DNA of 64,000 nucleotides. Origin: Phycisphaera sp. (GTDB lineage Bacteria; Planctomycetota; Phycisphaerae; Phycisphaerales; Zrk34). The notes below the pieces were generated by a model that made no database searches, was not told the origin of the DNA, and worked only from the letters and a program-made list of their open reading frames with translations. The DNA lies in assembly GCA_016125285.1 (NCBI GenBank), contig WGMA01000002.1, positions 62,001 through 126,000 of the forward strand, written 5' to 3'. The translations under genes were made by a program, and so were the position numbers. Below, one piece after another: positions 2,292 through 20,514 of the stretch. Every line of letters begins with the position of its first letter. The first letter of the stretch is position 1.

Positions 2292-2444
2292 CTCGGGTCT
2301 CCCGACCGATTTCTCGCAACTCCTGACCTGCCATGATACAACGGATTTGCCGCCTCGACGCGGCCCTGGCGAGACCGGCCGGGCCGTGGCGAATATCGTA
2401 AGCTGCTGTAATACGAAGCCCCGCAGTGCTATGTGCTTAACGAG

Positions 2445-2984
2445 ATGATCTCCGACCGCCACATCGAGTTCTTCCGTCAGCTGACCGACAGCCAGAGCCG
2501 GCTGTACGCGTACATCCTGTCGCTGGTGTCGAACCCGGAGGTGGCGCGTGACGTGCTGCAGGAGACGAACCTCGTGCTGATCCGCAAGGCGGCGGAGTTC
2601 GAGCCGGGCAGCAACTTCATCGCGTGGAGCTTCGCGGTGTCGCGGTACCAGGTCATGGCGTCGCGGACGCGCTCGTCGCGCGATCGGCTGGTGTTCTGCG
2701 ACGAGGTGCTCGACGCGATCAGCGGCGCGTTCGACGAAGACAACGAGCAGTTCGAGGACCAGCTCGACGCGCTGTCGAACTGCATGGCCAAGCTGCCCGA
2801 CAGCCACCGCGAGCTGATCCGCCAGCGGTACCAGGATGCGCGCCCGGTCAAGGCGATCGCCGAAGAACTCGGCCAGTCGGCCAACTCGGTCGCGGTCATG
2901 CTGCACCGCATCCGCAAGACGCTGATGGAGTGCATCGAGGGAGCGGCCGGTCCATCGCAGGCGCACGAGGGAGGCGCGGCGTGA
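2445..2984 (+). CDS. ECF-type RNA polymerase sigma factor, Rhodopirellula/Verrucomicrobium type
   Basis: The 179-residue product has a sigma-70 region 2 near residues 5-75 (RLYAYILSLVSNPEVARDVL, then an aromatic W-S-F helix) and a region 4 helix-turn-helix near residues 110-165 (LIRQRYQDARPVKAIAEELG). It would direct RNA polymerase to a small regulon. It overlaps the next gene by four bases (GTGA), the usual arrangement for a sigma factor with its FecR-like partner. An in-frame GTG at 2433 would add four residues; ATG at 2445 is preferred, although neither has a good ribosome site. TAATAC at 2409-2414 could be a -10 element, but no -35 was found. Confidence 0.88.
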   Translation: MISDRHIEFFRQLTDSQSRLYAYILSLVSNPEVARDVLQETNLVLIRKAAEFEPGSNFIAWSFAVSRYQVMASRTRSSRDRLVFCDEVLDAISGAFDEDNEQFEDQLDALSNCMAKLPDSHRELIRQRYQDARPVKAIAEELGQSANSVAVMLHRIRKTLMECIEGAAGPSQAHEGGAA

Positions 2985-4624
2985 GCGACAAGCAAGACAA
3001 CACGACGCCGGTGTGCGACGAGCTCGAACTGCTTGTGGTCGATGCGGTCGAGCGACGGCTCGACGACGCGTCGCACGCGCGGCTGGAGCAACTGCTGCTC
3101 AACAACCCCGACAACCAACGCCGCTACGTCGCGCTGATGCGCGTGCACGCGATGCTCGAGTGGCATCACGGCTCCGTCGTCGGCCTCCGCGAAGCGAAGC
3201 TGACGGACGACTCGGCGAAGACGAAGGACGCGCCGCTGGCGTGCGGTGTCGATCAGGCGTCGGGCGTCGCCGGTCGCGTCGGACGGTTCGGCACGGCGTG
3301 GCGCGTCGCGGCGATGATCGCACTGGTGGCGCTGATCGGCATCGGGGCGTGGTTCGCTCGCGACACCGGCAGCGGCGCGGGCCAGCAGGTCGCGGCGATC
3401 GATCGACCGGTGGTGACCGTCACCGACGCCTCCAACGCCGAGTGGTTCACCGACAGCCTGGAACAGCTCGAGATCGGCCAGGAGATCGCGGTGCACGACC
3501 GCGTGCGGCTGGCCGGCGGACGCATGCAGATGATGTTCAACAGCGGGGCCGTGGTTGACGTGTACGGGCCCGCGGAGTTCGAGGTGCTCGGCGACAACGC
3601 GGGGCGGCTGGTCAGCGGGAAGCTGTCGGCGTGGGTGCCGGCCCGCGCGGCGGGGTTCGCGGTCGACGCGCCCGGCGTGACCGTCACGGACCTCGGCACG
3701 GAGTTCGGCGTCGTGGCCGAGGGCGGCTTCGCCACGCAGGTGCACGTGTTCCGCGGCAACGTCCGCGCGTCGGTCAAGGCGCTGGGCAACCGCGCGGCCA
3801 GGGACTACCCGCTCGCGGCTGACCAGGGACTCGCGATCCCGATCGGTGACCCGACTTCGACCGACAAGCCCGATACCGACTACGCCGTGCGCGTGCTGCC
3901 GACAGATATGGAGCTGTTCCCGCGCGTGCAGCCGATCAGCCGCATCGTCGATCTCGCCGACATCGTCGGTGGTGGCGACGGCAGCGGCACCGGCACCGTG
4001 CGCGGCATCCGCCTCAACGACGGTCAGCCCGCGATCCAGCACGCCGAAGGCATCCAGGGCCTGCCGCCGAACCGGTTCGTCCCGGTGGCGGACAACCCGT
4101 ACGTCGACGGTGTGTTCATCCCCGACGGCGGGGCCGACGGCATGACCGGCGTGCCCGTCACGTCGACCGGCCAGACGGTCATCGGCCTGCCCGACACCGG
4201 CGGCGGCTCGTGGGACCACATCTGGAACCGGCCGAACCTCCGCGTGACCGACACGGTGCTCGACGGCGTCGACTACAGCGCCGAGGGCCGTTCGCTGCTC
4301 GGCTTCCACGCCAACAAGGGCATCACGTTCGACCTCGCCGCGATCCGTGCCGAGTACCCGGAGTGGAACATCCAGCGTTTCACCGCGATCGCCGGCAACA
4401 ACCACGGCTCGGTCGATTACCTCGTGCTGATCGACGGGCGTGTCGCGTATCGCCTGCTGCGTCATCTCGGTTCGCCGCGCGGCATCGACGTTGACGTACC
4501 GCTGACCGACGACGACCGCTTCCTGACGCTGGTGGCCTGCGACGGCGGTGACAACCTCGGCTACGACTGGTCGATCTGGGCCCAGCCGGTGCTTCAGCTC
4601 CGCGCGATCGGCGCCAAGCGCTGA
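2981..4624 (+). CDS. FecR-like transmembrane regulator with C-terminal NPCBM-like domain
   Basis: A GTG start inside the stop of the sigma gene gives 547 residues. The cytoplasmic N-terminus (residues 8-60) has the look of a planctomycete anti-sigma domain. One membrane segment sits near residues 108-125 (VAAMIALVALIGIGAWF). A FecR domain follows near 175-270 (GAVVDVYGPAEFEVL, TVTDLGTEFGVVAEGGFATQ). The last 140 residues (YSAEGRSLLGFHANKGITFD to DNLGYDWSIWAQPVLQL) match an NPCBM/NEW2 carbohydrate-binding fold. Inference: a periplasmic glycan-binding domain transmits a signal to the coupled sigma factor. The next gene begins 151 bases downstream. Confidence 0.85.
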   Translation: MSDKQDNTTPVCDELELLVVDAVERRLDDASHARLEQLLLNNPDNQRRYVALMRVHAMLEWHHGSVVGLREAKLTDDSAKTKDAPLACGVDQASGVAGRVGRFGTAWRVAAMIALVALIGIGAWFARDTGSGAGQQVAAIDRPVVTVTDASNAEWFTDSLEQLEIGQEIAVHDRVRLAGGRMQMMFNSGAVVDVYGPAEFEVLGDNAGRLVSGKLSAWVPARAAGFAVDAPGVTVTDLGTEFGVVAEGGFATQVHVFRGNVRASVKALGNRAARDYPLAADQGLAIPIGDPTSTDKPDTDYAVRVLPTDMELFPRVQPISRIVDLADIVGGGDGSGTGTVRGIRLNDGQPAIQHAEGIQGLPPNRFVPVADNPYVDGVFIPDGGADGMTGVPVTSTGQTVIGLPDTGGGSWDHIWNRPNLRVTDTVLDGVDYSAEGRSLLGFHANKGITFDLAAIRAEYPEWNIQRFTAIAGNNHGSVDYLVLIDGRVAYRLLRHLGSPRGIDVDVPLTDDDRFLTLVACDGGDNLGYDWSIWAQPVLQLRAIGAKR

Positions 4625-4775: not shown

Positions 4776-7700
4776 ATGATGAAAACCAACGTGATCGCGA
4801 TCCGCAGCCTTCGCAGCCTGTTCCTAATCACTCTTGTCGCGGCGGTGACGCTGCCCGCCGTGGCGCAGGACACCGCGTCGGTGTCGGGCATCCGCGCGGC
4901 GCTGAAGGCCGGCCAATACGACGAGGCGATCTCCGCCGCCGACGCCGCGCTGAAGGCCAAGGTGAAGGCCGCCGACGAGGCGCTGTACCTCAAGGCGCTG
5001 GCGCAGTTCCAGAAGCGTGACTTCGACGGCGCGGTCGCCACGGCCGACCAGCTGCTCAAGGATCACCCGCAGTCGGCGTGGCGGTACAAGGCCGCCTTCC
5101 TGAAGGCGCGATCGCTCGTGTCGCAGCGGCAGTGGGAGCCCGCGGAGAAGATCTACGAGGCCGAGGCGCACCGGCTGCTGTCGAACGATCGCAAGAAGGA
5201 CATCGCCGGCGTGCTGATCCGATTCGCCGACGACCTGGCGACCGAGCCCGGCCGCAACGACGTGGGAGCGCCGCCGGCCGACTACGGCAAGGCGTACCGG
5301 CTGTATCACCAGGCGCTGGACATGCAGATCGGGCGCGACCTGCGCGACGACGTGCTGTTCAAGCTCGGCCGCGCCGCGATGAAGGCGAACAACCTCGGCC
5401 AGGCCATCAACGATTTCCGCCAGTACCTCAGCGAGTTCGACCCCGACTGGATGGGCCCCGTCGGCAGCGCCGAGCGCACGCGGCAGCAGAAGCGTGAGCA
5501 CCCGCCGAAGCCCGGCATCCACATCCTCGACGCGCGGTTCCTGCTCGGCGAGTCGCAGCTGCTCGCCAATCAGCACCAGATCGCCCGCATCAACTTCGAG
5601 GACCTGCTCGGGTTGATCGACCGCGTGGCGAACCCCGACGCGACGACCGCGCAGCTCAAGGCCGACACGTCGCTGCAGATCGTCCGCACGTACAACCTGC
5701 CGAACCCCGGCAACCTGCTCGAGCAGGGCGTCAAGGCCGCGCGTGACTTCCTCGCCAGGCACCCGGCGCACCCCGAGGCCGTCGACGTGTCGTGGCAGAT
5801 CGGTCAGACGTATCACCAGGCCGGTCGCGCCGACGACGCGATCGCCGCGTACGAGGACTTCATCAACGGCAAGAACTACGACCTGCCCGACGGCGACGCG
5901 GCGACGGTGAAGATCGAGCGGCTGAACCAGAGCCCCGCCGAGCTGAAGGACACGCTGCAGAAGGTCGCGTTGTTCCAGATCGGTCAGATCCGCTACCAGC
6001 AGAAGCAGTACGACAAGGCGATCGCCGCGTGGCAGGGCTACATCAACCGCTACCCCAACGGGTCGCAGTGGGCCGACGCGCAGCGGATGATCATCGACGC
6101 CGAGTACGCGGTGGCGATCGACGCGGTCGCGGACGAGCAGTACGGCGCGGCGACGAACCTGTTCACGCAGTTCCTCGCCAAGCACCCGCTGGACGATCGC
6201 GCCCGTCAGGTGCTGTTCATCCTCGGCCAGATGCACGTGGCGACGGTCGAGATCGCCGAGCGCGACGCCGCGGCGAACGGCGGGGTCAACCGCGCGCCGG
6301 TCGCCGACGAAGCGTACCGCCGCGCGATCGCCGAGTGGGACAAGCTCGTCAGCAAGTACCCCAACACCGAGGAGTCGAGCCTGGCGTTGTTCCGCACGGG
6401 CGTGCTCTACGAAGAGAAGCTCGGCGACCTCGACAAGGCGCTCGACGCGTACCGCCGCCTCACGTGGGGCTCGTGGGCAGGCCAGGCCCAGCAGCGCATC
6501 GCGCAGATGACCAACAAGCAGCTCACGCTGAAGACCGAGCGTAAGTTCCGCACGAACGAGACGGCGCAGATCCACGTCGACACCCGCAACATCGAGAAGC
6601 TGACCGTGCGGCAGTACTTCCTCGACCCCGAGGCGTACTTCCGCAAGACGCACACGACGCGCGGCGTCGAGGACCTCGACATCTCGCTGATCGAGCCGGA
6701 CAAGACGTGGGAGGTGACGATCGACAAGTACGCGAAGTACAAGCCGCTGAGCCAGTCGATCGACATCCCGTTCGACGGCGACAAGCCCGGCGTGTGCATC
6801 GTCAACGTCGCGGAGGAAGACCTCGAAGCCACGACGCTCGTGGTGCGTTCGAACATCGACGTGGTGATGCGGTCGAGCCGACGCGAGCTGCTGGTGTACG
6901 CGGTGGACATGGTCGCGCAGAAGCCCGCGGCGGGCGTCGACGTGCTCGTCTCCGACGGCTCGGAGGTTTTTGCGACCGGCAAGACAGGCGACGACGGCGT
7001 GTTCCGCAAGGCCTATGACCAGCTCAAGAGCTGCAACGATCTCCGCGTATTCGCGTCGACGGGCAAGCACATCGCGTCGAACGCGCTCGGCCTCAACGGC
7101 CTGCAGGTTTCGCAGGGGCTGTCACGCAAGGGTTACATCTACACCGATCGCCCGGCGTATCAGCCGGGCCAGGTCGTGCACGCACGCGGCGTGATCCGCG
7201 ACGTGAAGGACGGCTCGTACGACGCCCCGGCGGGCGCGACGTGGATCGTCGACGTCAAGGACCCCAGCGGACGCCTGCTCCGCGAGGAGGAGGTCGAGCT
7301 GTCGAAGTTCGGCACGTTCGCGATCGACTTCGACCTCGACGCCGCGGCGCCGGTCGGGCAGTACGCCGTCAGCGCCCGGCCGAAGGACAAGGGCCAGGCC
7401 GTGGTGCACACCGGCAACTTCCTGGTGCAGCAGTTCCAGCTCCAGAAGATGAAGCTCGCGATCGACCTGCCGCAGTCGGTTTATTTCCGCGGCGAGGTGA
7501 TCAAGGCGAAGCTCAGCGCCGAGTACTACTGGGGCGAGCCGGTGGCCGGCAAGCCCGTGCGTTACAACCTGCCGGACGGCCGCAGCATCGTCGACAAGAC
7601 CGACGAGAAGGGCGAGCTGAAGTTCGAGTTCGACACCGCGGGCATGACGCCGGGCTCGACGCTGCAGTTCAGCGCGCAGATCGAGGGCGAGAACGTGTGG

Positions 7701-10700
7701 GCGCAGGCGACGGCGTCGCTGCCGCGTGTCGGGTTCAACATGAGCGTCAAGGCGTCGCAGGACCTGGTGCTGTCCGGCGAGCCGTTCGACGTGACGGTGA
7801 GCACGACCGCGCCGGACGGCAAGCCCGTCGGCCGCGACCTGACGCTCGTGGTGCTGCGTCGGCAGGTCGCCAATCCCGACCCGGTGCTCACGCAGGTGCC
7901 GTGGGTGCAGCGGCCTAAGCGTCCGTCGCTCGAGGTCACCGTTGAAACAAAGAAGGTCAAGACGGACGAGAAGACCGGCACGGCGAACGTGGCGTTGAAG
8001 CTCGAGAAGGGCGGCAGCTACATCCTGCGTGCGACGGGCGACGACCGCTTCAATCAGCCGGTGACCGCGCAGGGTCGTGTGACGATCTCCGACGAGAACG
8101 ACGCGACGAAGCTGCGGTTCTTCGCGGACAGCAACACGCTGAAGGTGGGCGGCGAGGCGACCGTGCGTCTGCACTCGCGTGTGAACAGCGGGCTGGCGCT
8201 GCTGACGTGGGAGGGCGAGTCGATCATCGAGCACCGCGTGGTGCCGATCAAGAAGGGCTACAACGCGCTGAAACTCGCGATCGGCCATGAGCACTTCCCC
8301 AACTTCCGGCTGGCGGTCACCGTGATGGACGGCAAGGACCTGCGCACGGCGGACAAGCCGTTCAAGGTGGAGCGTGAGCTGAAGGTCGCGATCAGGCCGG
8401 TCAAGGGCGTGTACGCGCCGGGCGGCAAGGGGCAGATCGAGATCGTGGTGACGGACCAGTTGGGCAACCCCGTCGAGGCGGAGCTGAGCCTGGCGCTGAT
8501 CGACGAGGCGCTGTACGCGATCTACGCCGACGGCACGCCGGACATCCTGTCGTTTTTCCAGCACGCGGCGCACCGTCACGCGGAGTTCCGCGTGACGTCG
8601 ACGAACGGCTTTACTTATACGGCCGAGACGCGTCACGTGATCAAGGCGATCCAGGACGAGGCGAACCGGCTCGTGGAGGTCGCGGAGAACGCGGCGCAGC
8701 TGCAGGACGCGCGCGCAGACTTGAAGGAGATGGCGAAGCTGGAGATGCGTCGCGCGTCGGCGCGCGACCGAGGCGGGTTCGCGCTCGGCGGGGCGATCGC
8801 GGAGAAGGCGATGGCCGAGCCGATGGCCGACGCGTTGTCGAACGCGCCGGGCGCGCCGCCTGCCCCGAAGCCGACCGCGGCCTCCGGGTTCGCCATGCGT
8901 CAGCTGGAAGCCGCGGACAAGAAGCGCAAGGACGACGCCGACGGCGTATTTTTCGGCGGCAAGGGCGGTGAGGGCGGCGGCGGATCGATGTCGCCGCGCC
9001 GCGAGCTGCCGGAGGCGGGCGTGTGGCTGCCGTCGGTCGTTACCGATAAGCAGGGCAAGGCGACCGTGACCGTCACGCTGCCGGAGAAGACGACGCAGTG
9101 GCGGATCACCGGTCGCGGCGTGAGCGTCGAGACGCTGGTCGGACAGGCCACGAGTGACGTGGTGACACGCAAGGACTTCTTCGTCGAGATCAAGTCGCCG
9201 CGCGCCGTGACGGAGGGCGACACGCTGCGTCTGCTGGCGCGCGTGCACAACCTGACGGACTACGCCGGGCCGGTCGACCTGACGCTCGTGGTCAACAGCG
9301 GCGGCAAGCGGCTGAACCAGATCCGTCAGTCGGTGCGCGTCAAGGCGAACGACACGACGGAGGTGCTGCTGGAGTCGTTCAAGGCGCCGGCGGCGGGCGA
9401 GATCGAGACGGTGCTCAGCGCCGAGGCGGGCGAGCTGCGTGACGCGCTGAGCCGGACGATGCCCGTCCACCCGTGGGGCATGGAGTACGCGGACCACGGC
9501 GGCGGCACGAGCACGGGCGTGGCGGGTGTGAGCCTGACGCTGCCCGGCGGCATCGAGTACACGTCGCGCTGGCTGACGGTGACCGTCGGGCCGAGCGTCG
9601 AGCAGTCGGTGATCAACATGGCGCTGAACGGCGGGGTGATCATGCCGATGCCGCTGGCGGATAACGGCGCGGTGTCGTCGCCGCGGATCATGCCGCCGGT
9701 CGGCGGGTTCGACGGCTCGGAGCTGCTGGCGAGCGTCAGCGGGCTGAGCTACGCCCAGGCGGTGGGGGCGACGGAGACCGACAAGCGTCGCCTCGGCGAC
9801 AAGGTCCGCTCGCTGGTCAGCGCACTGGTCGTGACGCAGATGCCCGACGGCGGGTGGGGCTGGTACGGCAACAACCAGACCGACTGGGGCGTGACGTCGA
9901 CGAGCTACTGGGCGCTGGCCCGCGCGCAGCAGCTGGGCGTGACGGTGAACCCCGACACGCTGAAGCGCGCCGAGCAGTACCTCAACAACATGATCGCCCG
10001 CGTCGCGGCGTCGGACAACGACGCCAAGGCCGTGATCCTCCACGCGCTGTCCGTCGGCAAGGCCGCGGACTTCAAGCTGGTCAACCCGCTGTACCGCGAG
10101 CGGAACGGGCTCAGCGAGATCGCGCTGGCGTACGCGGCGCTGACGCTGGCGAACCTCGACCGGGCGCAGCAGGCCGTCGAACTGCTGGACATCCTCGAAG
10201 CGAAGGCGAAGCCCACGCAGGTCGGCGGGCGGCAGCTGCGCAACTGGGACAGCAAGACGCGCTACCCGTGGCTCAACGACGAGATCGAGAGCACGGCGGT
10301 GGCGGTGCTGGCGATGATGAAGGTCAAGCCGACGAGCAAGGCGATCGAGCCGGCCATCCAGTTCCTGCTGAACCGTCGCGGCTGCATCGGCTGGAACCCG
10401 GCCAAGTCGCGCGGCCCGGCCGTCGCGGCGCTGGCCGGCTACTACGCGTCGGGCAAGTTCGCCGACGCCGATTACGAGCTGACCGTGTCGGTCAACGGCA
10501 AGCCGGTCAAGACGATCAAGCGTGAGCACAGCGGCGAGCCGGTCGCGATCCAGGTGCCGGTCGGGCTGATCGGTCAGGGCGCCAACAGCGTGCGGTTCGA
10601 GATGAACGGCCGCGGCGCCTACACCTACGCCGCGACCCTCCGCGGGTTCAGCCCCGAGTTCAAGGACCCCAAGAGCTTCAGCTACCCGTACGTGCATCAC

Positions 10701-12893
10701 CGCTACTTCTACCACGCGCCGCTGACGTACCGCGATCACCCGATCAACGCCTCGAGCTCATCGACGGTGTCGAACCTCGAGATCGGCCAGCACACGCGCG
10801 TCCGCGTCGACATGTACAACACCGGCTACAACGGCTACCTCGTCGTCGAGGAGCCGCTGCCCGCGGGCGCGACGCTTGTCGACGGCTCGCTGTCCGGCGG
10901 GTTCACCCACTACGACGTCCGCGACGGGCGCATCTTCATGTACTACCCGCCCGGTCGCTCGGTTGGCGACGTGACCTACGAGCTCGTGGGCTACTCGACC
11001 GGTGCGTACCGCGTGCTGCCGACTGTGATCCGCGACGTGCTGAACCCCGGCCGGATGCGCATCGGTCACGTCGACACGCTCAACGTGCTCGGCCCCGATG
11101 AGAAGTCCAAGGATCCCTACAACATCAACGACGCCGAGCGCTACGCGCTGGGCAAGCTGAACTTCGACGACGGGCTGTACAAGCAGGCGCTGGAGTACCT
11201 GTGGCCGCTGTTCGACCGCGAGAGCAAGTACAACGAGCGCGATGTGGCGCGGATGCTGCTGTGGATCCACACGACGGACGATCTGTACGACGCCCGCCGC
11301 GTGGTGGCGACCTTCGAGGTGCTCAGCGTGCGTCACCCCGAGCTGACGATCCCGTTCGATCGCATCCTCGTGGTCGGCAAGGCGTACCGCGACCTCGGCG
11401 AGTTCGAGCGGGCGTACCTCGTGTTCCGCGCGACGATCGACTCCAGCTTCCTGGCGGACTCGAACATCTCGGCGGTGCTGCAGGACGAGGGCCAGCTGCT
11501 CGGGTCGATCGACTACCAGGAGGACCTGTGGTGGCATTACCCCGACACGGCGGAGGTGGCGTCGAGCTACTTCGCGCTGTCGCAGCTGATGTACGAGAAC
11601 GCCAGCCGCGCCGCGGAGCTGGCGCGTAACCAGCGTCAGGTGCGCATCCGCGTGCAGGTGCCCGGGCAGGACGACAAGGGCCCCGCGGCCGTCGACAAGC
11701 CGACGCGCCCGGCGATGCTCGCGGCGACGATCCGCATGATCGACAACTTCATGGTGCTGTACCCCGACAGCCCGCTGGCCGACGACGCGGCATTCAGCGT
11801 GTCCAACGCCTTCCTCGACCTGCAGAACTACGACGCCGTGGTCAACCTCTCGCAGGCCTACCGCAAGCGGTTCGACAAGAGCGAGTTCGTCAGCAGCTTC
11901 CAGTACATGACGGCGCTCGGTTACTTCTGGCAGCGCAAGTACGACCCGGCTCTCGACGCGGCGAAGGTCGTGGCGGACGGCAAGAGCAAGGACCGCGACT
12001 TCGCCCGCTACATCCTCGGACAGATCTATCACGCGCAGGGCGAGCCGGCCAAGGCGATCGACTGGTACCGCAAGGTCGCAGGCAAGTACCCCGACGCCAA
12101 GCAGTCGATCGATTACTTCGAGAAGAAGCAGGTCGCGATCGACGAGGTGTCGGTGTTCAAGCCGGGCGAGGCGGTGAAGCTGGAGCTGCGTTACCGCAAC
12201 ATCCCCACGGCGAACCTGCAGGTCTACAAGGTGGACCTGATGAAGCTGTACCTGCGTGAGAAGAACCTGAGCAACATCACGTCGGTGAACCTCGCGGGCA
12301 TCGAGCCGCAGGTCGTCAAGGACGTGAAGCTCGGCGACGGGCACGACTACGTCGATAAGACGACCGCCGCCGAGCTGCCGCTCAAGGACGAGGGGGCGTA
12401 CCTGGTCATCTGCCGCGGCGACAACCTGTTCACCAGCGGGCTGGTGCTGATCACGCCGCTGAAGATCGAGGTGCAGGAAGACGCCGTGAGTGGCCGCGTG
12501 CGCGCCAACGTGATCGACGCGGTCAAGAACCAGCGGCCGGCGCAGGTGCACGTCAAGGCGATCGGCAGCGACCAGTCCGAGTTCCGCAGCGGCGACACGG
12601 ACCTGCGTGGCCTGTTCATCGCCGACGGCATCCGCGGCAAGGTCACCGTCATCGCACGCGACGCCGACGCACGCTACGCCTTCTACCGCGGCGACACGTG
12701 GCTCGGCGCGCCGGCGAACCGTCCGCAGGGCCAGCAGGGCGCCAAGCAGGCCGAATTCGAGTCCAACAACGACTTCGACTACCAGGGGAACCTGCGGTCG
12801 ACGAATCAGCTGCTGCAGAAGTCGTATAACTCAAATTGGGACCAGCTGCGTCGCTCGGGCGGCAACGGCGTGCAGGTGCAGCAGGCGAAGTGA
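4776..12893 (+). CDS. Giant secreted alpha-2-macroglobulin-like protein with N- and C-terminal TPR blocks
   Basis: The 2705-residue protein has a signal peptide (residues 1-31, ending AVAQ). TPR-like helices fill about residues 35-590. Macroglobulin domains begin near 590, with the MG2 signature YIYTDRPAYQPGQVVHARG near 788. A flexible Ala/Gly-rich stretch at about 1285-1410 sits where a bait region would be. The A2M core (GVWLPSVVTDKQGKATVTVT) is near 1414, and an alpha/alpha-toroid like a thioester domain lies at 1650-1890. No CGEQ or similar thioester motif is present, so covalent trapping is unlikely. A second TPR block (about 2110-2440) and another macroglobulin-like module (2450-2640) follow. 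The likely role is envelope protection or scaffolding. An AGGGG ribosome site precedes the tandem ATGATG start. Confidence 0.85.
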   Translation: MMKTNVIAIRSLRSLFLITLVAAVTLPAVAQDTASVSGIRAALKAGQYDEAISAADAALKAKVKAADEALYLKALAQFQKRDFDGAVATADQLLKDHPQSAWRYKAAFLKARSLVSQRQWEPAEKIYEAEAHRLLSNDRKKDIAGVLIRFADDLATEPGRNDVGAPPADYGKAYRLYHQALDMQIGRDLRDDVLFKLGRAAMKANNLGQAINDFRQYLSEFDPDWMGPVGSAERTRQQKREHPPKPGIHILDARFLLGESQLLANQHQIARINFEDLLGLIDRVANPDATTAQLKADTSLQIVRTYNLPNPGNLLEQGVKAARDFLARHPAHPEAVDVSWQIGQTYHQAGRADDAIAAYEDFINGKNYDLPDGDAATVKIERLNQSPAELKDTLQKVALFQIGQIRYQQKQYDKAIAAWQGYINRYPNGSQWADAQRMIIDAEYAVAIDAVADEQYGAATNLFTQFLAKHPLDDRARQVLFILGQMHVATVEIAERDAAANGGVNRAPVADEAYRRAIAEWDKLVSKYPNTEESSLALFRTGVLYEEKLGDLDKALDAYRRLTWGSWAGQAQQRIAQMTNKQLTLKTERKFRTNETAQIHVDTRNIEKLTVRQYFLDPEAYFRKTHTTRGVEDLDISLIEPDKTWEVTIDKYAKYKPLSQSIDIPFDGDKPGVCIVNVAEEDLEATTLVVRSNIDVVMRSSRRELLVYAVDMVAQKPAAGVDVLVSDGSEVFATGKTGDDGVFRKAYDQLKSCNDLRVFASTGKHIASNALGLNGLQVSQGLSRKGYIYTDRPAYQPGQVVHARGVIRDVKDGSYDAPAGATWIVDVKDPSGRLLREEEVELSKFGTFAIDFDLDAAAPVGQYAVSARPKDKGQAVVHTGNFLVQQFQLQKMKLAIDLPQSVYFRGEVIKAKLSAEYYWGEPVAGKPVRYNLPDGRSIVDKTDEKGELKFEFDTAGMTPGSTLQFSAQIEGENVWAQATASLPRVGFNMSVKASQDLVLSGEPFDVTVSTTAPDGKPVGRDLTLVVLRRQVANPDPVLTQVPWVQRPKRPSLEVTVETKKVKTDEKTGTANVALKLEKGGSYILRATGDDRFNQPVTAQGRVTISDENDATKLRFFADSNTLKVGGEATVRLHSRVNSGLALLTWEGESIIEHRVVPIKKGYNALKLAIGHEHFPNFRLAVTVMDGKDLRTADKPFKVERELKVAIRPVKGVYAPGGKGQIEIVVTDQLGNPVEAELSLALIDEALYAIYADGTPDILSFFQHAAHRHAEFRVTSTNGFTYTAETRHVIKAIQDEANRLVEVAENAAQLQDARADLKEMAKLEMRRASARDRGGFALGGAIAEKAMAEPMADALSNAPGAPPAPKPTAASGFAMRQLEAADKKRKDDADGVFFGGKGGEGGGGSMSPRRELPEAGVWLPSVVTDKQGKATVTVTLPEKTTQWRITGRGVSVETLVGQATSDVVTRKDFFVEIKSPRAVTEGDTLRLLARVHNLTDYAGPVDLTLVVNSGGKRLNQIRQSVRVKANDTTEVLLESFKAPAAGEIETVLSAEAGELRDALSRTMPVHPWGMEYADHGGGTSTGVAGVSLTLPGGIEYTSRWLTVTVGPSVEQSVINMALNGGVIMPMPLADNGAVSSPRIMPPVGGFDGSELLASVSGLSYAQAVGATETDKRRLGDKVRSLVSALVVTQMPDGGWGWYGNNQTDWGVTSTSYWALARAQQLGVTVNPDTLKRAEQYLNNMIARVAASDNDAKAVILHALSVGKAADFKLVNPLYRERNGLSEIALAYAALTLANLDRAQQAVELLDILEAKAKPTQVGGRQLRNWDSKTRYPWLNDEIESTAVAVLAMMKVKPTSKAIEPAIQFLLNRRGCIGWNPAKSRGPAVAALAGYYASGKFADADYELTVSVNGKPVKTIKREHSGEPVAIQVPVGLIGQGANSVRFEMNGRGAYTYAATLRGFSPEFKDPKSFSYPYVHHRYFYHAPLTYRDHPINASSSSTVSNLEIGQHTRVRVDMYNTGYNGYLVVEEPLPAGATLVDGSLSGGFTHYDVRDGRIFMYYPPGRSVGDVTYELVGYSTGAYRVLPTVIRDVLNPGRMRIGHVDTLNVLGPDEKSKDPYNINDAERYALGKLNFDDGLYKQALEYLWPLFDRESKYNERDVARMLLWIHTTDDLYDARRVVATFEVLSVRHPELTIPFDRILVVGKAYRDLGEFERAYLVFRATIDSSFLADSNISAVLQDEGQLLGSIDYQEDLWWHYPDTAEVASSYFALSQLMYENASRAAELARNQRQVRIRVQVPGQDDKGPAAVDKPTRPAMLAATIRMIDNFMVLYPDSPLADDAAFSVSNAFLDLQNYDAVVNLSQAYRKRFDKSEFVSSFQYMTALGYFWQRKYDPALDAAKVVADGKSKDRDFARYILGQIYHAQGEPAKAIDWYRKVAGKYPDAKQSIDYFEKKQVAIDEVSVFKPGEAVKLELRYRNIPTANLQVYKVDLMKLYLREKNLSNITSVNLAGIEPQVVKDVKLGDGHDYVDKTTAAELPLKDEGAYLVICRGDNLFTSGLVLITPLKIEVQEDAVSGRVRANVIDAVKNQRPAQVHVKAIGSDQSEFRSGDTDLRGLFIADGIRGKVTVIARDADARYAFYRGDTWLGAPANRPQGQQGAKQAEFESNNDFDYQGNLRSTNQLLQKSYNSNWDQLRRSGGNGVQVQQAK

Positions 12894-12940
12894 CGCGCGG
12901 CGCGCGGTTGGCGACGCCACGGACGAGGGCCTATCATCGT

Positions 12941-14308
12941 ATGTCGATGCACCCCACGATCCGGAAACAATGCGCCATCGTGACGGCCGCCGTGCTGACG
13001 CTGACGATCCTGCTCGTCGCCCGTGCTCGCGCCGCGGACGACGGCACGCCGCCGCCGGTCGAACGCGCCACCGCGCCGGACGAGCCGCTGGTTCGTCCGC
13101 TGACGGACGACCGCTGGGAGGATCACGCGTACGGCATGTCGTTCCGCCTGCCGGCGATGGCCCGCACGTCGCGAGCCGAGGGATCGCTCGTCGAGATCAT
13201 CGACGAGCAGAAGCTGTACACGCTGACCGTCAAGAACAAGCGTCCGCCGAAGCTGCTGACGCTCGACGCCGCGATCCTCTCGGGCATCGACGAGATGGCG
13301 CATCAGCAGAACACCAACCAACTCGTCGAAGCGGCGCACAAGGTCGCGCTGTCGGACCGGCAGGCGGGCGTGCTGAAGTTTCACTCGCCGCAGGCGCTGG
13401 GCGGGCCGGTCTTCGTCGCGTTCGGCATCGTGCCGATCGACATGGCGAGCTTCGTCGTGCTGGAGATACGCTGCGACTACGACAACCGCGAGAAGGTCGA
13501 ACCGATCTTCGACGCGGTGCTGGCGTCCGTCGAGTTCGGCGACCTCAAGGAGCTGCAGGAGGTCCGGCGCAAGCAGCTGGATATGACACGCTCCTGGCGA
13601 CAGGCGATGGCCGACGGCGGCATCAACGCAACGATCGAGGCCGCGCTGATCCCCGAGCAGTGGTACCGCATCATCGAGAAGAACAAGGACGTCGGCTACG
13701 TCAACATCGTCCAGAAGCACGGCGAGCGCGAGCTGCGGAAGGGCACGATCGTGACCGTCCGATCGCGCGTCGCGGTGAAGGGCAAGTACGTCGACTCGCT
13801 CGACCAGTACTTCCTGAGTGACGACGACGAGATGGAGGCCTGGTCGCAGCGGGCGACCGAGCGGCCGGAGATCGCGGTCCTCGCGCCGCGTGGCAAGGCG
13901 GCGCCGCAGAACCCCACGATCGTCAAGACCGGCATCCGCACCGGCCCGCACCTGACGATCACCATCGACGACCCCACCGGCAAGCACGCCACCGAATACG
14001 TCCGCCCCGACGTCGGCTACCTCTCGCAGGTCGAGTCGTGGCTGCTGCCGCAGATCCTGCCGATCAATCGCCCGGGGACCTACGGGTTCTACTACTACAA
14101 CCCCGAAGAGCGTAAGATCACGTTCCGTACCGACAAGGTCATCCCGGCGTTGACCGGCTACACGGTGATCACCCGCCTGACGCCCAACGCCCCGGAGATC
14201 CACGCGAACTTCGATCGGCAGCGGCAGCTTATCGAGAAGCGGGCGGGTGCCACGCGCGTGATCAGCGCGACGCGTGAGCAGATCGAAGGGCTGTGGCGCG
14301 GACGCTGA
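12941..14308 (+). CDS. Secreted protein of unknown function
   Basis: The 455-residue product has a signal peptide (hydrophobic core AIVTAAVLTLTILLVA, cleavage near ARA-AD) and no recognised domain. Residues 30-200 contain a soluble alpha/beta region (SFRLPAMARTSRAEGSLVEI). The remainder has several beta-strand-rich segments (NKDVGYVNIVQKHGERELRK, GFYYYNPEERKITFRTDK). It lies 47 bases after the giant macroglobulin-like gene on the same strand, so the two may be co-transcribed. ATG at 12941 was chosen because it immediately precedes the signal peptide and GAGGG lies about 12 bases upstream; an ATG two codons later is also possible. The longer upstream frame is arginine-rich and was discarded. 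Confidence 0.75.
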   Translation: MSMHPTIRKQCAIVTAAVLTLTILLVARARAADDGTPPPVERATAPDEPLVRPLTDDRWEDHAYGMSFRLPAMARTSRAEGSLVEIIDEQKLYTLTVKNKRPPKLLTLDAAILSGIDEMAHQQNTNQLVEAAHKVALSDRQAGVLKFHSPQALGGPVFVAFGIVPIDMASFVVLEIRCDYDNREKVEPIFDAVLASVEFGDLKELQEVRRKQLDMTRSWRQAMADGGINATIEAALIPEQWYRIIEKNKDVGYVNIVQKHGERELRKGTIVTVRSRVAVKGKYVDSLDQYFLSDDDEMEAWSQRATERPEIAVLAPRGKAAPQNPTIVKTGIRTGPHLTITIDDPTGKHATEYVRPDVGYLSQVESWLLPQILPINRPGTYGFYYYNPEERKITFRTDKVIPALTGYTVITRLTPNAPEIHANFDRQRQLIEKRAGATRVISATREQIEGLWRGR

Positions 14309-14388: not shown

Positions 14389-14730
14389 TTGGGGCTTGAG
14401 CACGTAGAAGCCGATACTGACGAAGAACGTCCACAGGGCAAGCCGCACAGCGCCGGCGCAGCGGTTTGCCTGGGAGTCGTCGTGCCGGGACTCGGGCAGG
14501 CGTACAACGGCTGCCCCTGGCGTGCGTTGTTCTACCTGCTGACCACGCCGCTGGTGCTGCCGTGGCTGCTGAGCCTCGTCGACGCCTACGTCTGCGGTCG
14601 CCGCATCGAGCGCGAGGGGGGGCGGCTGTACCGCGGCGGGTGCCTGTGGGTGTTCCTCCACTTCTGGCTCGTGGCCAACGTGCTGCTGCTGACGCTCGTG
14701 GGCCTGTCCGTGGCGGGGGTGATCCAGTGA
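14389..14730 (+). CDS. Small two-helix membrane protein with a PGLGQ motif
   Basis: The product is about 113 residues. It begins with a short hydrophilic stretch and then has VVVPGLGQAYNGCPWRALFY, a motif seen in small TM2/DUF5683-like membrane proteins. Two hydrophobic hairpins follow (LLTTPLVLPWLLSLVDAYV and LWVFLHFWLVANVLLLTLVG). The start is uncertain: TTG at 14389 follows a purine-rich GGGGAGCGGAAGGGG stretch, while GTG at 14353 overlaps the predicted transcription start. The stop overlaps the next gene by four bases (GTGA), so the two proteins are probably made together. No function is assigned; an accessory to the downstream protease is an inference. Confidence 0.65.
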   Translation: MGLEHVEADTDEERPQGKPHSAGAAVCLGVVVPGLGQAYNGCPWRALFYLLTTPLVLPWLLSLVDAYVCGRRIEREGGRLYRGGCLWVFLHFWLVANVLLLTLVGLSVAGVIQ

Positions 14731-17582
14731 GCAAGGCCTCCGCACCGCCGCCGCTGCCGAGCGAGACGCCGCCGGACGAACCGGCGCCGACCCAGCCGCG
14801 CAAGCCGCGCCCGAACTTCGGCTGCCTCGGCTGCTTCTGGACCTTCAGCCTCTTCGTCTTTACCGCCGTGGCCGCGGGCGCGCTGTGGTGGCTCAACCCG
14901 ATGTGGTTCGACCGCATGGCGATGTGGCGCGGCCCGGTGCTGTCTGAGCAGACGGTGTTCATCGCGGCCGACGACACGCGGTCGGATATCGACGTCGAGA
15001 TGCAGCGGCAGAAGCGCATCGAGAGCGGCATCGAACGCTGGCCCGGCGCGGCGGTCAACACCGGCTACTCGCCGCAGTCCGGCGCCACGCTGCAGACCAT
15101 CGAAGGCACGATGCTCCAGTTCCCGCCCGGCGCGATGACCGGTCAGGCGCGCATCGAAGCCGTGCCGGTCGTCGGGCTGCCCGAAGAGATCATCGACACC
15201 AGCGGAGGCCCGTTGCCGGTCGGCCCGCTGCACGACGTGCGCGTCGACGGGCGAGCGCACACGGTATTCAGCACGCCGGTGCGCGTCCGCGTGCCGATCG
15301 ACGCCAAGAGCCTGCCGGCGGGCGTCGACGTCAAGAACCTGCGCGTCGGCAGCTACGCCGAGGGCAAGTGGGAGGCCGTGCCGTCGCGGCTGGACCCGGG
15401 CGGCAAGTTCGTCGAGGGCGAGGTGCAGCACGCGAGCCTGATCGGCGCGGTGGCGATCGGCACGGGCGCCGTCGCGCTGGTAGGGAAGTTCACCGAGACC
15501 GGCCGGACGCTCCGCCGCATCATCGCCCAGCGCAACACCTACGCGAAGAACGTCTACGACACCGACAACTTCAGCATCTACTACGGCGACGGCACCGACA
15601 TCCTGCAGGACGGCGCGTACCCGTTGACCGCGGGGCGGGCGTCGGACGGCGTGCCGTGCTACGTCAAGGACGTGGGCAGGTGGATCGAGGACGCACGCGA
15701 GCACCTCGACGTGGTCGGCATGAGCGTGGGGCGCGGCGTGCCGCACCGGTGGGGCGTGTTCCTCGCGCCGCTCGACAACTTCGGCTCGACGGCTCTCGGC
15801 GGCCCGGTGATCATCGACAACGACATGCTGGGGCGCAACGAGACGTCGTACCCGCCCGACCTGGAGTACCGCATCCACAACACCGTCGTCCACGAGCTGA
15901 TCCACGTCGCGCAGGACGACTTCTTCAACGCCTCCAACGCCACCGGGCAGGAGTGGTGGATCGAGTCGACCGCCGAGTACCTGGGCAACAAGTATCTCGC
16001 CCTGCGCGGCGGGCCGAAGGGCGACAAGCGGTACTACGTCCGCAACGACTTCCGCATGCTCGAGACGCCGCTCGACGAGGCGACCGCCGAACGCCCGTAC
16101 GCCTACGCGTCGTTCTATGAGTTCCTCGACGAGCAGCGGGGGATGGACGTCGTGGCCGCGATCAAGCGCACCAACGAGATGGGCGCGCCGAAACTGCTCA
16201 ACGTGTCACGCGGCTTCGGCGAAGACTTCGGCGACGGGTTCATCAAGTTCGCCAAGGCGTTCTACCACGACAACCTCTGGCAGGACCGCTTCGCCTCGCC
16301 GCAGACCGTCGCCGCGGACCTCAACACGGTCGAGGTCTTCACGCACCTCTCGGCGACCGGCGGGCAGCAGGGCGCGGTGCGGTTGTACACGTACGTCGAG
16401 CGGCAGCTGCCGATGAAGCACCTCACGGCCCAGTACTTCAACTTCCACGCGCCGCGGCTGCCCGCGGACATCGACGCGAAGCTGGTGATCCACTTCCCCA
16501 ACGCCGCGGGCAACCCGGCGGGGCACGACGCGTTCGTCTCGGCGATCCGCGAGCCGCGCACGTTCCCCCTGCGCGGCTCGCCCACCGAGCTCGAGTGGAT
16601 CAACATCTCCGCCGCCAATCAGTCCGCCGTGTTCGACATCACCGAGTCGTCGCACGCCGACGCGAAGAAGGCGAGCCAGGTGTCGCTGCTGGTGATCAAC
16701 CACTCGGCGTTGTCCGACGGCCCGGAGCTGACCGTGCGGCGGTGGCTGCTGCTGCCGCCCGACAGCGGGTCGTTCAAACGCCTCGACAACGGCCACTACG
16801 CGCTGACCTGGCAGACCGCGATCCTCCGCCAGCAGGACCGCGGCGGCAAGGCGTTCAAAGGCTACAACGTCTACCGCCGCAAGTCAGGCGACAAGGAGTT
16901 CCCCGCCACGCCGCTGAACACCGACGGCCCGCTGACCGTCGAGACGTGGACCGACGAGCACGTGCCGAACGACGGCGCGAACTACACCTACGGCGTGACG
17001 GTCGTCGACCAGCTCGACAACGAGTCCGACCACCGCGTGCTCGACAACGAGGACCCGTTCGAGGGCGTCTGGACCGGCAAGGTGATCCTCGTCAAGGGCA
17101 GCATCACCGACCCGGTCGAGCGTTGGGCCAAGCAGGATCACGAGAAGGACCGCAAGGACTACCAGCAACGCATCGCCAGCGAGCAGGACGCCGACGCTCG
17201 GGCGCGTCTGCAGCGTCAGTGGGACGACAAAGATCAGGAGTTCGAGAAGGACCTTAAGACGGTGCTGGAAGCGTTGGACAAGTTCGAGGAGGTCGCACGC
17301 TTCGGTATACCCGCGACGTTCCGCGTGAAGCTGGAGGACGGCAAGTACTACCTGAAGTTCGAGAAGTTCCTCGGCATTGAGACGAAGGCCGACGACAAGG
17401 ACGCCGTGGAGATGCGCCGCAACACCAACGCGCTGATGACCGTCGAGCAACTCGACAACGTCTCGCCGCTGATCCTCCGGCTGCACCGCGCCGATGAGAT
17501 CAACTCGACGTGGGAGTGGTCCGGCGACACCGAGGTGGGCAACCTCAGCTACGGCATCCGCTTCGATTTCAAACGCGAGTGA
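14727..17582 (+). CDS. Membrane-anchored HExxH zinc metalloprotease-like protein
   Basis: The GTG start overlaps the preceding stop; the product is 951 residues. A proline-rich N-terminus is followed by one membrane segment near residues 36-57 (CFWTFSLFVFTAVAAGALWW). Residues 110-245 are beta-rich. The zincin motif VVHELIHVAQ has H389, E390 and H393, and EWWIESTAEYLG supplies the expected downstream glutamate (E413), which is gluzincin-like. Later segments resemble an Ig/lectin-like region (about 550-670) and a fibronectin type III-like module (YALTWQTAILRQQDRGGKAF, about 690-770). The last 180 residues are charged and partly coiled-coil. The catalytic domain probably faces the periplasm. Substrate unknown. 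Confidence 0.8.
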   Translation: MSKASAPPPLPSETPPDEPAPTQPRKPRPNFGCLGCFWTFSLFVFTAVAAGALWWLNPMWFDRMAMWRGPVLSEQTVFIAADDTRSDIDVEMQRQKRIESGIERWPGAAVNTGYSPQSGATLQTIEGTMLQFPPGAMTGQARIEAVPVVGLPEEIIDTSGGPLPVGPLHDVRVDGRAHTVFSTPVRVRVPIDAKSLPAGVDVKNLRVGSYAEGKWEAVPSRLDPGGKFVEGEVQHASLIGAVAIGTGAVALVGKFTETGRTLRRIIAQRNTYAKNVYDTDNFSIYYGDGTDILQDGAYPLTAGRASDGVPCYVKDVGRWIEDAREHLDVVGMSVGRGVPHRWGVFLAPLDNFGSTALGGPVIIDNDMLGRNETSYPPDLEYRIHNTVVHELIHVAQDDFFNASNATGQEWWIESTAEYLGNKYLALRGGPKGDKRYYVRNDFRMLETPLDEATAERPYAYASFYEFLDEQRGMDVVAAIKRTNEMGAPKLLNVSRGFGEDFGDGFIKFAKAFYHDNLWQDRFASPQTVAADLNTVEVFTHLSATGGQQGAVRLYTYVERQLPMKHLTAQYFNFHAPRLPADIDAKLVIHFPNAAGNPAGHDAFVSAIREPRTFPLRGSPTELEWINISAANQSAVFDITESSHADAKKASQVSLLVINHSALSDGPELTVRRWLLLPPDSGSFKRLDNGHYALTWQTAILRQQDRGGKAFKGYNVYRRKSGDKEFPATPLNTDGPLTVETWTDEHVPNDGANYTYGVTVVDQLDNESDHRVLDNEDPFEGVWTGKVILVKGSITDPVERWAKQDHEKDRKDYQQRIASEQDADARARLQRQWDDKDQEFEKDLKTVLEALDKFEEVARFGIPATFRVKLEDGKYYLKFEKFLGIETKADDKDAVEMRRNTNALMTVEQLDNVSPLILRLHRADEINSTWEWSGDTEVGNLSYGIRFDFKRE

Positions 17583-18507: not shown

Positions 18508-20511
18508 TTAATTCGCATTCTCATTTTGAGAGCCTGGCGGGGCGGTCTCGGCCAGCTTCTGGTGCTGCGCGGCGAGGGCGTCCTGGCCGACGTGTCGGTA
18601 AGCCTCCGCAAGTGCCTTGTGCAGCTGGGGTTGGCCACGCATTGCGACGAGAGCGGCTTCGAGGTCCGGGATGGCGTTCTCCCAGCGTTCCATGGTCACG
18701 AGCACCTGTCCGCGGGTCTCGCGGTAGCGGGGGTTGCCGGGGTCCATCTTCAGGGCGTCGTCGATGGCCTTGAGGGCGCGTGTCATGTCGGGCGGGCTGG
18801 CTCGCATCTCCGCCCAGGCGAGGTTGTTGGCGATGAGAGCGGATCGCGGCTCGAGGTCGCGCGCGGCGCGGAGGTGGAGGCGGGCTTCTTCGTCCGACCC
18901 GCGGAGGATCGCGTCGGTGCCGATCATGAAGTGCGCCGCGGCGGTCGCTTCGCCGCGTGCGAGCATCTCGTTGAGCAGGGCGGCGACGTCCGGGCCGAGA
19001 TCCTTCGACGTGCGGCGCAGTTCGAGCAGCCGCTCGATGGCCACGGCGTCCCACGGCGAATAGGTCAGGGCCGATCGCAGCAGCGTGAGTCGGCCGCGCC
19101 GTTGCTCAGCGGTCTGTGCGGTCTTGATCACGTCGTCCCACCAGTTGGTGTAGGTGCGCGCCAGGGCGTTGGCGAGCAGCGGCGCGGGTGATTTCTTCCA
19201 CTCGCTTTCGAGCATCGCCACGGCGTGCTCGTGATCGCCGAGCGCCGACGACGCGTCGGCGGCGAGCAGCCGCCACTTCAGCGTGGTCGTGTCCTGCGCG
19301 AGCCGCGCTTCGTAGTCATCCGCCGCGGCCTGGGCGACGCGCCGCGCGCCCTCTTCGTCACCCGCGGCGCGGTACACGCGCGCCAACTCGCTGCGTATCT
19401 CCGGTCGCTGTTCGGCGACGGTCGCCAGGTGCGGCACGGCTTCGGCCGGTTGACCCAGCGCGCGGTACGCGTTGCCGAGCACGAAGTGGTCGTCTGTCGT
19501 GAGGTTCTTCTTGGTCTTGAGCACCTCGATGGCCTGACGCAGCCACCGCGCGGCGATCGCCTGGCCGAGCCCCTCGGTGGTCGCACGCTGGTACTGCAGC
19601 AACGCCAGCGCCGACTTGAACGGCCCGGCCGGCTGCAGCACCACGCCGTCGTGCAGCACCTGCTCGGCGCGGCCGCGATCGCCGATGAGGTTCAGCGCGT
19701 CTGCGTACTGCAGCCGCGCGTCGCGCTGGTTGGGGTGAGCGGCGACGCGTCGCCCCAACGCCTCGGCGGCCGATCGCGCGAACGGCAACGCCGCGTCACG
19801 CTGCCCGCGCCCGTTCAGCAGGCTCGCCAGCTCCAGCGCCGCCACCGGGCTGCCGCTCGCGGCGCGCCGCCAGTGCTGCTCGGCACGCTCGGGACGCTCG
19901 GTCGCCATGCAGATGCGCCCCATCAGCAGGTGCGCGTCCGCGTTGTCCGGCTCGTCCCTGAGGCAACGCAGCAGGTGCGCCTCGGCACGCTGCATCGCGT
20001 CGGTGTCACCGGGCGCCGCGGCCCGGAGGATGTTCTGCGCCACCAACGCGTGCGCCGCGGCATACCCGCTGTCGTCGTCCGGCGCCAGCGACCGAAGCAG
20101 CGCCGCGGCGTGCGCGCGCTGGTCGAGGTTCTGCAGCGTCACCGCCAGACCGTATCGATAGCGTTGGCTGGCAACGTCATCGGCGACCAGCCGCCGGTAG
20201 CACACGCGGGCCGTCTCGTAGTTGCCCTCCGACAGCGCCAGCGCGCCGACCTGTTCGTAGCGGTTGCGCAGCGACGGGTTGTTCCACGCCACGGCGGAGA
20301 CCCACATCGCCGCGCCGAGCGCCGCCAGCATCGGGAACGCCTGCATCAGGTAGAGCGGCTGGGCGGGCAGCAGACGGCGCAACCGCTTGTACGCGCCGTA
20401 AAACCGGGCGGGGCTGATCCGCACACGCGACAACGGTTCGAGCCGGGTCTTCAGCCAGCTGGCCGCCCGCTTCGTAGGGCCGCGTCGGTTTTTGCGGTTG
20501 CGCTTCGCCAT
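18508..20511 (-). CDS. Membrane-anchored TPR-repeat protein of the exosortase cluster
   Basis: The 667-residue product has a very basic N-terminus, one membrane segment near residues 55-76 (YLMQAFPMLAALGAAMWVSA), and then TPR repeats over almost its whole length. Examples are YEQVGALALSEGNYETARVC, ADAHLLMGRICMATERPERA, and near the C-terminus NPRYRETRGQVLVTMERWEN. Its start lies three bases after the exosortase stop, so the two are almost certainly translationally coupled. Large TPR proteins accompany exosortases in several EPS/PEP-CTERM loci and probably act as periplasmic scaffolds. Exact function unknown. Confidence 0.85.
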   Translation of the reverse strand: MAKRNRKNRRGPTKRAASWLKTRLEPLSRVRISPARFYGAYKRLRRLLPAQPLYLMQAFPMLAALGAAMWVSAVAWNNPSLRNRYEQVGALALSEGNYETARVCYRRLVADDVASQRYRYGLAVTLQNLDQRAHAAALLRSLAPDDDSGYAAAHALVAQNILRAAAPGDTDAMQRAEAHLLRCLRDEPDNADAHLLMGRICMATERPERAEQHWRRAASGSPVAALELASLLNGRGQRDAALPFARSAAEALGRRVAAHPNQRDARLQYADALNLIGDRGRAEQVLHDGVVLQPAGPFKSALALLQYQRATTEGLGQAIAARWLRQAIEVLKTKKNLTTDDHFVLGNAYRALGQPAEAVPHLATVAEQRPEIRSELARVYRAAGDEEGARRVAQAAADDYEARLAQDTTTLKWRLLAADASSALGDHEHAVAMLESEWKKSPAPLLANALARTYTNWWDDVIKTAQTAEQRRGRLTLLRSALTYSPWDAVAIERLLELRRTSKDLGPDVAALLNEMLARGEATAAAHFMIGTDAILRGSDEEARLHLRAARDLEPRSALIANNLAWAEMRASPPDMTRALKAIDDALKMDPGNPRYRETRGQVLVTMERWENAIPDLEAALVAMRGQPQLHKALAEAYRHVGQDALAAQHQKLAETAPPGSQNENAN

Positions 20512-20514
20512 CGG

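What the first reader, a model, noticed from the sequence alone, without database searches (positions are those of the whole stretch)
4776..12893. Very large macroglobulin-like protein framed by two TPR blocks and lacking the thioester
The 2705-residue frame has the A2M core and an alpha/alpha-toroid but no CGEQ-type thioester, and TPR blocks precede and follow the macroglobulin part. A second macroglobulin-like module sits after the C-terminal TPRs. This is far larger than E. coli-type bacterial A2M (about 1650 residues) and suggests a scaffold or non-covalent protease trap rather than a covalent one.
Basis: partly seen in the sequence, partly recalled or inferred. Interest (0 to 1): 0.6.

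Follow-up and report, generated by a model that had tools for sequence, protein, structure and literature searches.

The report
Thioester-free macroglobulin with twin TPR ends
This gene encodes an exported 2,705-residue relative of the alpha-2-macroglobulin/complement proteins that has lost their covalent hook and carries a matching helical-repeat module at each end; the design is shared by a family found mainly in Planctomycetota and Verrucomicrobiota, and it probably forms a non-covalent protein cage.

Summary
Window 4776-12893 (+) is one intact, exported 2705-aa protein: TPR, macroglobulin (MG) ring, bait-position loop, CUB/TED without CxEQ, MG8, TPR, two more MG domains. It is not an assembly artefact: 56 full-length single-ORF homologues were recovered, mostly from Planctomycetota and Verrucomicrobiota. 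None of 80 homologous loci has a thioester motif, whereas all 16 other readable A2M genes in 11 of the same genomes keep it. The segment that should hold the motif has decayed into a variable linker. The C-terminal TPR-MG-MG block is a divergent copy of the N-terminal one and includes the best conserved part. A 2025 preprint describes CAGE, a hollow ~1 MDa homotetramer of unknown function, whose bacterial homologues are mostly from the same phyla and carry signal peptides. Its published domain order (alpha, beta, alpha, beta, alpha, beta, with split beta domains around inserts) resembles this protein's. I propose this family is, or is sister to, bacterial CAGE; no CAGE sequence was available to test that.

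The parts
4776..12893 (+). whole gene, 2705 aa, TPR - macroglobulin - TPR - MG-MG
   Evidence: 56 full-length homologues
4776..4865 (+). Sec-type signal peptide, residues about 1-30, no lipobox; most homologues also have a clear one
   Evidence: sequence read directly; survey of 64 sequences
4887..6500 (+). N-terminal TPR block (residues about 38-575)
   Evidence: Pfam TPR_6/TPR_16/YfiO, CpoB- and BamD-type; not modelled
6519..7091 (+). two MG domains after the N-terminal TPRs (MGa 582-679, MGb/bMG3-like 683-772)
   Evidence: model; bMG3 hit below cut-off; homologous to residues 2452-2643
7128..8372 (+). MG2 to A2M_BRD: four MG domains (785-884, 892-981, 988-1105, 1113-1199)
   Evidence: Pfam MG2/MG4/BRD; model; VIA Z 32.5 over 735 residues to A2ML1
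8382..9167 (+). split MG6 domain (1203-1287 and 1416-1464) enclosing the bait-position loop
   Evidence: model strands; A2M Pfam 1416-1501
8706..8984 (+). bait-position loop (residues 1311-1403): disordered, hypervariable; the wider segment 1296-1410 is 69-268 aa across homologues
   Evidence: pLDDT under 50; 64-sequence comparison
9177..9470 (+). MG7 domain (1468-1565)
   Evidence: model
9480..10652 (+). CUB (1569-1605 and 1899-1959) with the alpha/alpha-toroid TED (1608-1891) inserted
   Evidence: model; VIA Z 31.6 to TEP1r 2pn5 over 535 residues
9627..9710 (+). degenerate segment where the CxEQ thioester should be (residues about 1618-1645)
   Evidence: hhalign against thioester paralogues puts YPYGCVEQ here; no CxEQ in 64 of 64 sequences
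10689..11087 (+). MG8/bMG10 domain (1972-2104)
   Evidence: Pfam bMG10 (E 4e-4, below its cut-off); model
11130..12122 (+). C-terminal TPR block (2119-2449)
   Evidence: Pfam TPR; model; homologous to the N-terminal block
12129..12704 (+). two C-terminal MG domains (2452-2548, 2551-2643), among the most conserved parts of the protein
   Evidence: hhalign 98.5%, E 2e-15 to the MG pair at 567-768; conservation about 0.6-0.76
12777..12890 (+). conserved C-terminal tail helix and final residues, motif NLxxxNxxIQ...RR....GVxVxxA
   Evidence: pLDDT 77-92

Best explanation
The protein is an exported member of the alpha-2-macroglobulin superfamily that has lost the covalent thioester for good. It keeps the MG ring, the bait-position loop, the CUB/TED pair and MG8, and has a TPR-MG-MG module at both ends. 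Most likely it acts outside the cytoplasm (periplasm or paryphoplasm) as a non-covalent cage: the twin TPR-MG-MG ends hold subunits together in a homo-oligomer, as in the CAGE tetramer, and cleavage or rearrangement at the bait loop lets the cage close on a client, most plausibly a protease. Shown by computation: export signal, domain anatomy, end duplication, family-wide thioester loss, fold. Inferred: oligomerisation, bait function, client identity, cellular location.
For: Intact gene and domains. Models superpose on the macroglobulin core: Z 32.5 over 735 residues and Z 31.6 over 535 residues. The family aligns over 1475 columns with thioester-bearing A2Ms, E 2e-128. Thioester motif absent in all 80 loci but present in 16 of 16 other readable A2M genes in 11 of the same genomes. 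In the tree the sampled family is one side of a 100/99 branch. The bait-position loop is kept, disordered and hypervariable. N- and C-terminal TPR-MG-MG blocks are homologous, E 4e-27 over 465 columns, and the C-terminal one is the most conserved region. Signal peptides, with a lipobox-like match in only one of 64. Precedent: the thioester-free Type II A2M MagD traps TEV protease non-covalently (PMC5764988). CAGE (PMC12485934): hollow homotetramer, similar alpha/beta order, prevalence in Planctomycetota and Verrucomicrobiota, bacterial signal peptides.
Against: No direct evidence of protease binding, bait cleavage or oligomerisation. The hypervariable loop may only be an unconstrained linker. 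The family has no conserved operon partner, unlike the mag operon. Published CAGE1 has fewer MG-like domains than this protein, and its authors found no PDB match for helical domains 1 and 13, whereas these helices score as TPR. The CAGE link rests on published domain boundaries, not on a sequence or structure comparison.
Confidence: 0.5

Rival explanations
1. A constitutive container or chaperone, CAGE-like, that encloses client proteins but is not triggered by proteolysis; the bait-position loop is a passive remnant.
For: Thioester site decayed and loop hypervariable with no conserved site; the ends are conserved most; the CAGE authors suggest chaperone or container and saw no bound substrate.
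Against: BRD-to-A2M spacing is close to that of thioester-bearing paralogues (168 aa here against 158 in two paralogues), consistent with a retained bait function though not proof of it.
Confidence: 0.3
2. A structural scaffold or adhesin of the cell envelope, with TPRs binding envelope partners and the MG domains serving as stiff spacers.
For: TPRs are of the CpoB/BamD envelope type; exported and very large; loss of thioester chemistry is tolerated.
Against: The whole macroglobulin topology, including split MG6, bait-position loop and CUB/TED, is kept across phyla, which a simple spacer would not need; no conserved envelope gene next to it.
Confidence: 0.15
3. Assembly artefact or chance fusion of separate TPR and A2M genes.
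For: A few homologues are split into two or three frames (L106, L117, L139).
Against: 56 full-length single-ORF homologues in many genera and at least two phyla, including cultured strains.
Confidence: 0.01

Closest known systems
Type II bacterial A2M (MagD of Pseudomonas aeruginosa, PMC5764988)
   Same: no CxEQ, bait region kept, exported, MG/TED core; MagD traps a protease non-covalently
   Different: here TPR-MG-MG modules at both ends, about 2700 aa, no mag-type operon; no sequence or tree comparison with MagD itself was made
CAGE complex (Tetrahymena CAGE1, Dictyostelium AbpF, PMC12485934)
   Same: order alpha / beta domains / alpha inside a split beta domain / beta / alpha / beta; about 200-aa C-terminal beta block; two alpha blocks alike; prevalence in Planctomycetota and Verrucomicrobiota; bacterial members with signal peptides
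Type I bacterial A2M (E. coli YfhM/ECAM, Salmonella A2M)
   Same: MG2-BRD-A2M-TED-MG10 core, bait-position loop
   Different: YfhM has CLEQ, is a lipoprotein (general knowledge), has no TPR and lies next to pbpC
Thioester-bearing 2000-2160-aa A2Ms of related bacteria (e.g. L038, L043)
   Same: align from the end of the N-terminal helices through MG10; MGa-MGb head present
   Different: keep YPYGC(V/T)EQ and lack the C-terminal TPR-MG-MG block
Complement C5, A2ML1, CD109, TEP1
   Same: fold of the MG ring, CUB/TED and MG8; C5 also lacks a thioester (general knowledge)
   Different: no TPR; animal proteins

Membership tests
alpha-2-macroglobulin superfamily | MG2, bait-region domain, A2M domain and TED/MG8 in order | tested here: met
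   Pfam above cut-off for MG2, BRD, A2M; whole-core superposition
alpha-2-macroglobulin superfamily, thioester (Type I) class | CxEQ internal thioester | tested here: not met
   absent in the window protein and all 80 homologous loci
Type II bacterial A2M | no CxEQ but bait region kept | tested here: met
   position, length and disorder of the loop only; cleavage not tested
Type II bacterial A2M | encoded in a six-gene mag-type operon (often, per PMC5764988) | tested here: not met
   no mag-type DUF among ten neighbouring ORFs; no conserved neighbour in the family; the only DUF2135 gene in the genome is on another contig and not A2M-like
Type II bacterial A2M | non-covalent protease capture after bait cleavage | not testable with these tools
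   needs biochemistry
CAGE | alpha-beta-alpha-beta-alpha-beta domain order with split domains flanking the inserts | tested here: inconclusive
   own domain map against published boundaries: order agrees, number of beta domains does not
CAGE | bacterial members exported, mostly Planctomycetota and Verrucomicrobiota | tested here: met
CAGE | sequence homology to CAGE1/AbpF | not testable with these tools
   no CAGE sequence held; profile searches of the PDB copy showed no CAGE chain
CAGE | hollow homotetramer | not testable with these tools
   needs native mass, SEC or cryo-EM

The most novel reading that the evidence does not exclude
This family is the bacterial form of the CAGE complex. CAGE would then be a macroglobulin-superfamily protein that gave up the covalent thioester and has duplicated TPR-MG-MG ends, linking an orphan megadalton cage of eukaryotic microbes to the complement/macroglobulin fold and giving it a testable function as a non-covalent trap.
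Probability: 0.5. Interest if true: 0.75.

Novelty: new variant of a known kind. Interest (0 to 1): 0.6.

Why it matters
It defines a large bacterial family of giant, thioester-free macroglobulins with a fixed, duplicated end module, and shows that thioester loss is a stable feature rather than decay of one gene. If the CAGE link holds, the function of a widely conserved hollow protein assembly, which its discoverers left open, becomes directly testable from the well-studied macroglobulin mechanism, and in bacteria.

Tried and rejected
Assembly artefact: rejected. Conserved operon partner: all-against-all comparison of the flanks of 80 loci gave only families spread over varied positions and no conserved partner; only one downstream gene recurs, in one relative. 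CAGE chain in the PDB copy: not found by profile nor in the displayed Foldseek/VIA rows, so the cage link stays untested. A 2580-aa TPR protein on contig C9 was checked as a possible paralogue and matches only through TPRs. The window-genome DUF2135 gene is not related to this protein.

Full report
WHAT IS THERE. Window 4776-12893 (+) encodes one uninterrupted 2705-residue protein. Third-position G+C (0.95) marks it as the coding frame against the long antisense frames. It begins with a Sec-type signal peptide without lipobox, as do most of its homologues (simple rule-based reading, start codons not verified). Pfam finds TPRs at both ends and MG2, A2M_BRD, A2M and (weakly) bMG10 between them; the TPRs resemble CpoB/YbgF and BamD.

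FOLD. Two AlphaFold models on 60-row alignments cover residues 560-2705 (mean pLDDT 83 and 86). They give, in order: two MG domains (582-772), four more (785-1199), a split MG6 (1203-1287 and 1416-1464) around a disordered loop (1311-1403), MG7 (1468-1565), a CUB domain (1569-1605 and 1899-1959) around an alpha/alpha toroid (1608-1891), MG8 (1972-2104), a second TPR block (2119-2449), two further MG domains (2452-2643) and a short C-terminal helix. Domain names and borders are my reading of the strands and helices, guided by the macroglobulin matches. The N-terminal TPR block was not modelled. The first fragment matches activated macroglobulins (Z about 25-32) better than native ones (about 21-22 for the animal proteins); since it was folded without most of the TED this may be an artefact and is not used as evidence.

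THIOESTER. The protein has four cysteines, none in a CxEQ context. Profile alignment with thioester-bearing paralogues places their YPYGCVEQ opposite residues around 1620-1640, which in 64 sequences is a linker of variable length without the motif. No CxEQ was found in any of 80 homologous loci, some of them partial. In 11 genomes that carry the family, the 11 members found in the A2M search lack the motif, while all 16 other readable A2M genes have it; one further locus could not be read. One protein of the thioester clade outside the family, L046, has lost the motif independently, so loss can recur.

FAMILY. Full-length members are about 2540-3060 aa. They were found in 11 of 397 genomes of the window's class and in 19 of 190 genomes of the order of a verrucomicrobial genome. 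The species-representative collection gave 130 loci with only two short conserved peptides as bait, so this is a lower bound. Record titles name Planctomycetota and Verrucomicrobiota most, with some Poribacteria, Lentisphaerae, Sumerlaeia, Spirochaetales and Deltaproteobacteria bins; some titles may be misassigned bins. Blastopirellula marina DSM 3645 and Tautonia sociabilis are cultured. In a tree of the A2M-to-TED region the sampled members form one side of a branch with 100/99 support, thioester A2Ms the other. The root is by midpoint, so direction of change is inferred, not shown.

DUPLICATED ENDS. Profile comparison aligns the C-terminal TPR-MG-MG block with the N-terminal one over 465 columns (E 4e-27), and the MG pair alone at E 2e-15. 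Part of the first score comes from TPR likeness; the MG pair has no such excuse. The thioester paralogues have the N-terminal MG head, to which the C-terminal block also aligns (97%), and end at MG10 with no C-terminal block. The simplest history is that the head was copied to the C-terminus in the ancestor of this family, whose thioester was also lost; the order of the two events is not known. The C-terminal block is the most conserved region (windows of 0.6-0.76 in the MG pair, against 0.2-0.33 at the old thioester segment), so current function depends on the ends more than on the thioester part of the TED.

MECHANISM. Covalent trapping by a CxEQ thioester is excluded. Type II MagD shows that a thioester-free bacterial A2M can hold a protease after bait cleavage (PMC5764988). 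The bait-position loop here has a spacing similar to that of thioester paralogues, is predicted disordered, and is hypervariable. This fits a bait but would also fit a free linker.

CAGE. A preprint (PMC12485934) describes a hollow homotetramer of about 1 MDa in Tetrahymena and Dictyostelium, with bacterial homologues mostly in Planctomycetota and Verrucomicrobiota and carrying signal peptides. Its CAGE1 boundaries read: alpha 1-443; beta 444-1195, with domain 8 split (963-1021, 1151-1195); domain 10 split (1215-1244, 1565-1598) around alpha domain 11; beta 1606-1738; alpha 1751-2011; beta 2014-2215. Read against macroglobulin topology, the split domains would correspond to MG6 around a bait insert and CUB around a TED, and the tail to MG8, alpha block, MG pair: the layout of the window protein. 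This reading is mine. The authors report domains 4 and 6 as A2M-like and alpha domains 1 and 13 as alike, in line with the duplicated ends seen here, but do not describe CAGE as an A2M-superfamily protein. CAGE1 seems to lack one MG and MG7, and its helical domains 1 and 13 were reported without PDB match. I could not compare sequences: profile searches of the PDB copy showed no CAGE chain. I rate the identity at about 0.5.

NEIGHBOURHOOD. No neighbour is conserved across the family. Upstream lie an ECF-type sigma factor and a FecR-like membrane protein by sequence inspection; downstream a secreted protein with a relative near the homologue in one relative genome (L037/L102), then a protein with an HExxH motif.

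Noticed in passing
window 14466-17582 (+): Probable membrane-anchored protein with an HELIHVAQ (HExxH) metallopeptidase-like motif, about 1.6 kb downstream of the macroglobulin gene; no Pfam hit; not found next to other family members.
   Followed up: partly
window 12836-14308 (+): Secreted protein of unknown family directly downstream, with a 32% identical relative about 1.6 kb downstream of the homologue in L037/L102.
   Followed up: partly
window 2433-4624 (+): ECF-type sigma factor followed by a FecR-like membrane protein (by sequence inspection), upstream of the gene.
   Followed up: no
window 18508-22158 (-): TPR protein next to an exosortase/EpsI-like membrane protein (by sequence inspection).
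   Followed up: no
L046 6450-12920 (+): A 2157-aa protein inside the thioester clade whose motif has become YPYRSTDAT: an independent loss of the thioester.
   Followed up: partly
L193 922-8661 (+): 2580-aa exported TPR protein in the window's own genome; related to the finding only through TPRs.
   Followed up: partly
L047 7337-12121 (+): Second A2M gene of the same genome, 1595 aa, with thioester PSGCFEQ.
   Followed up: partly
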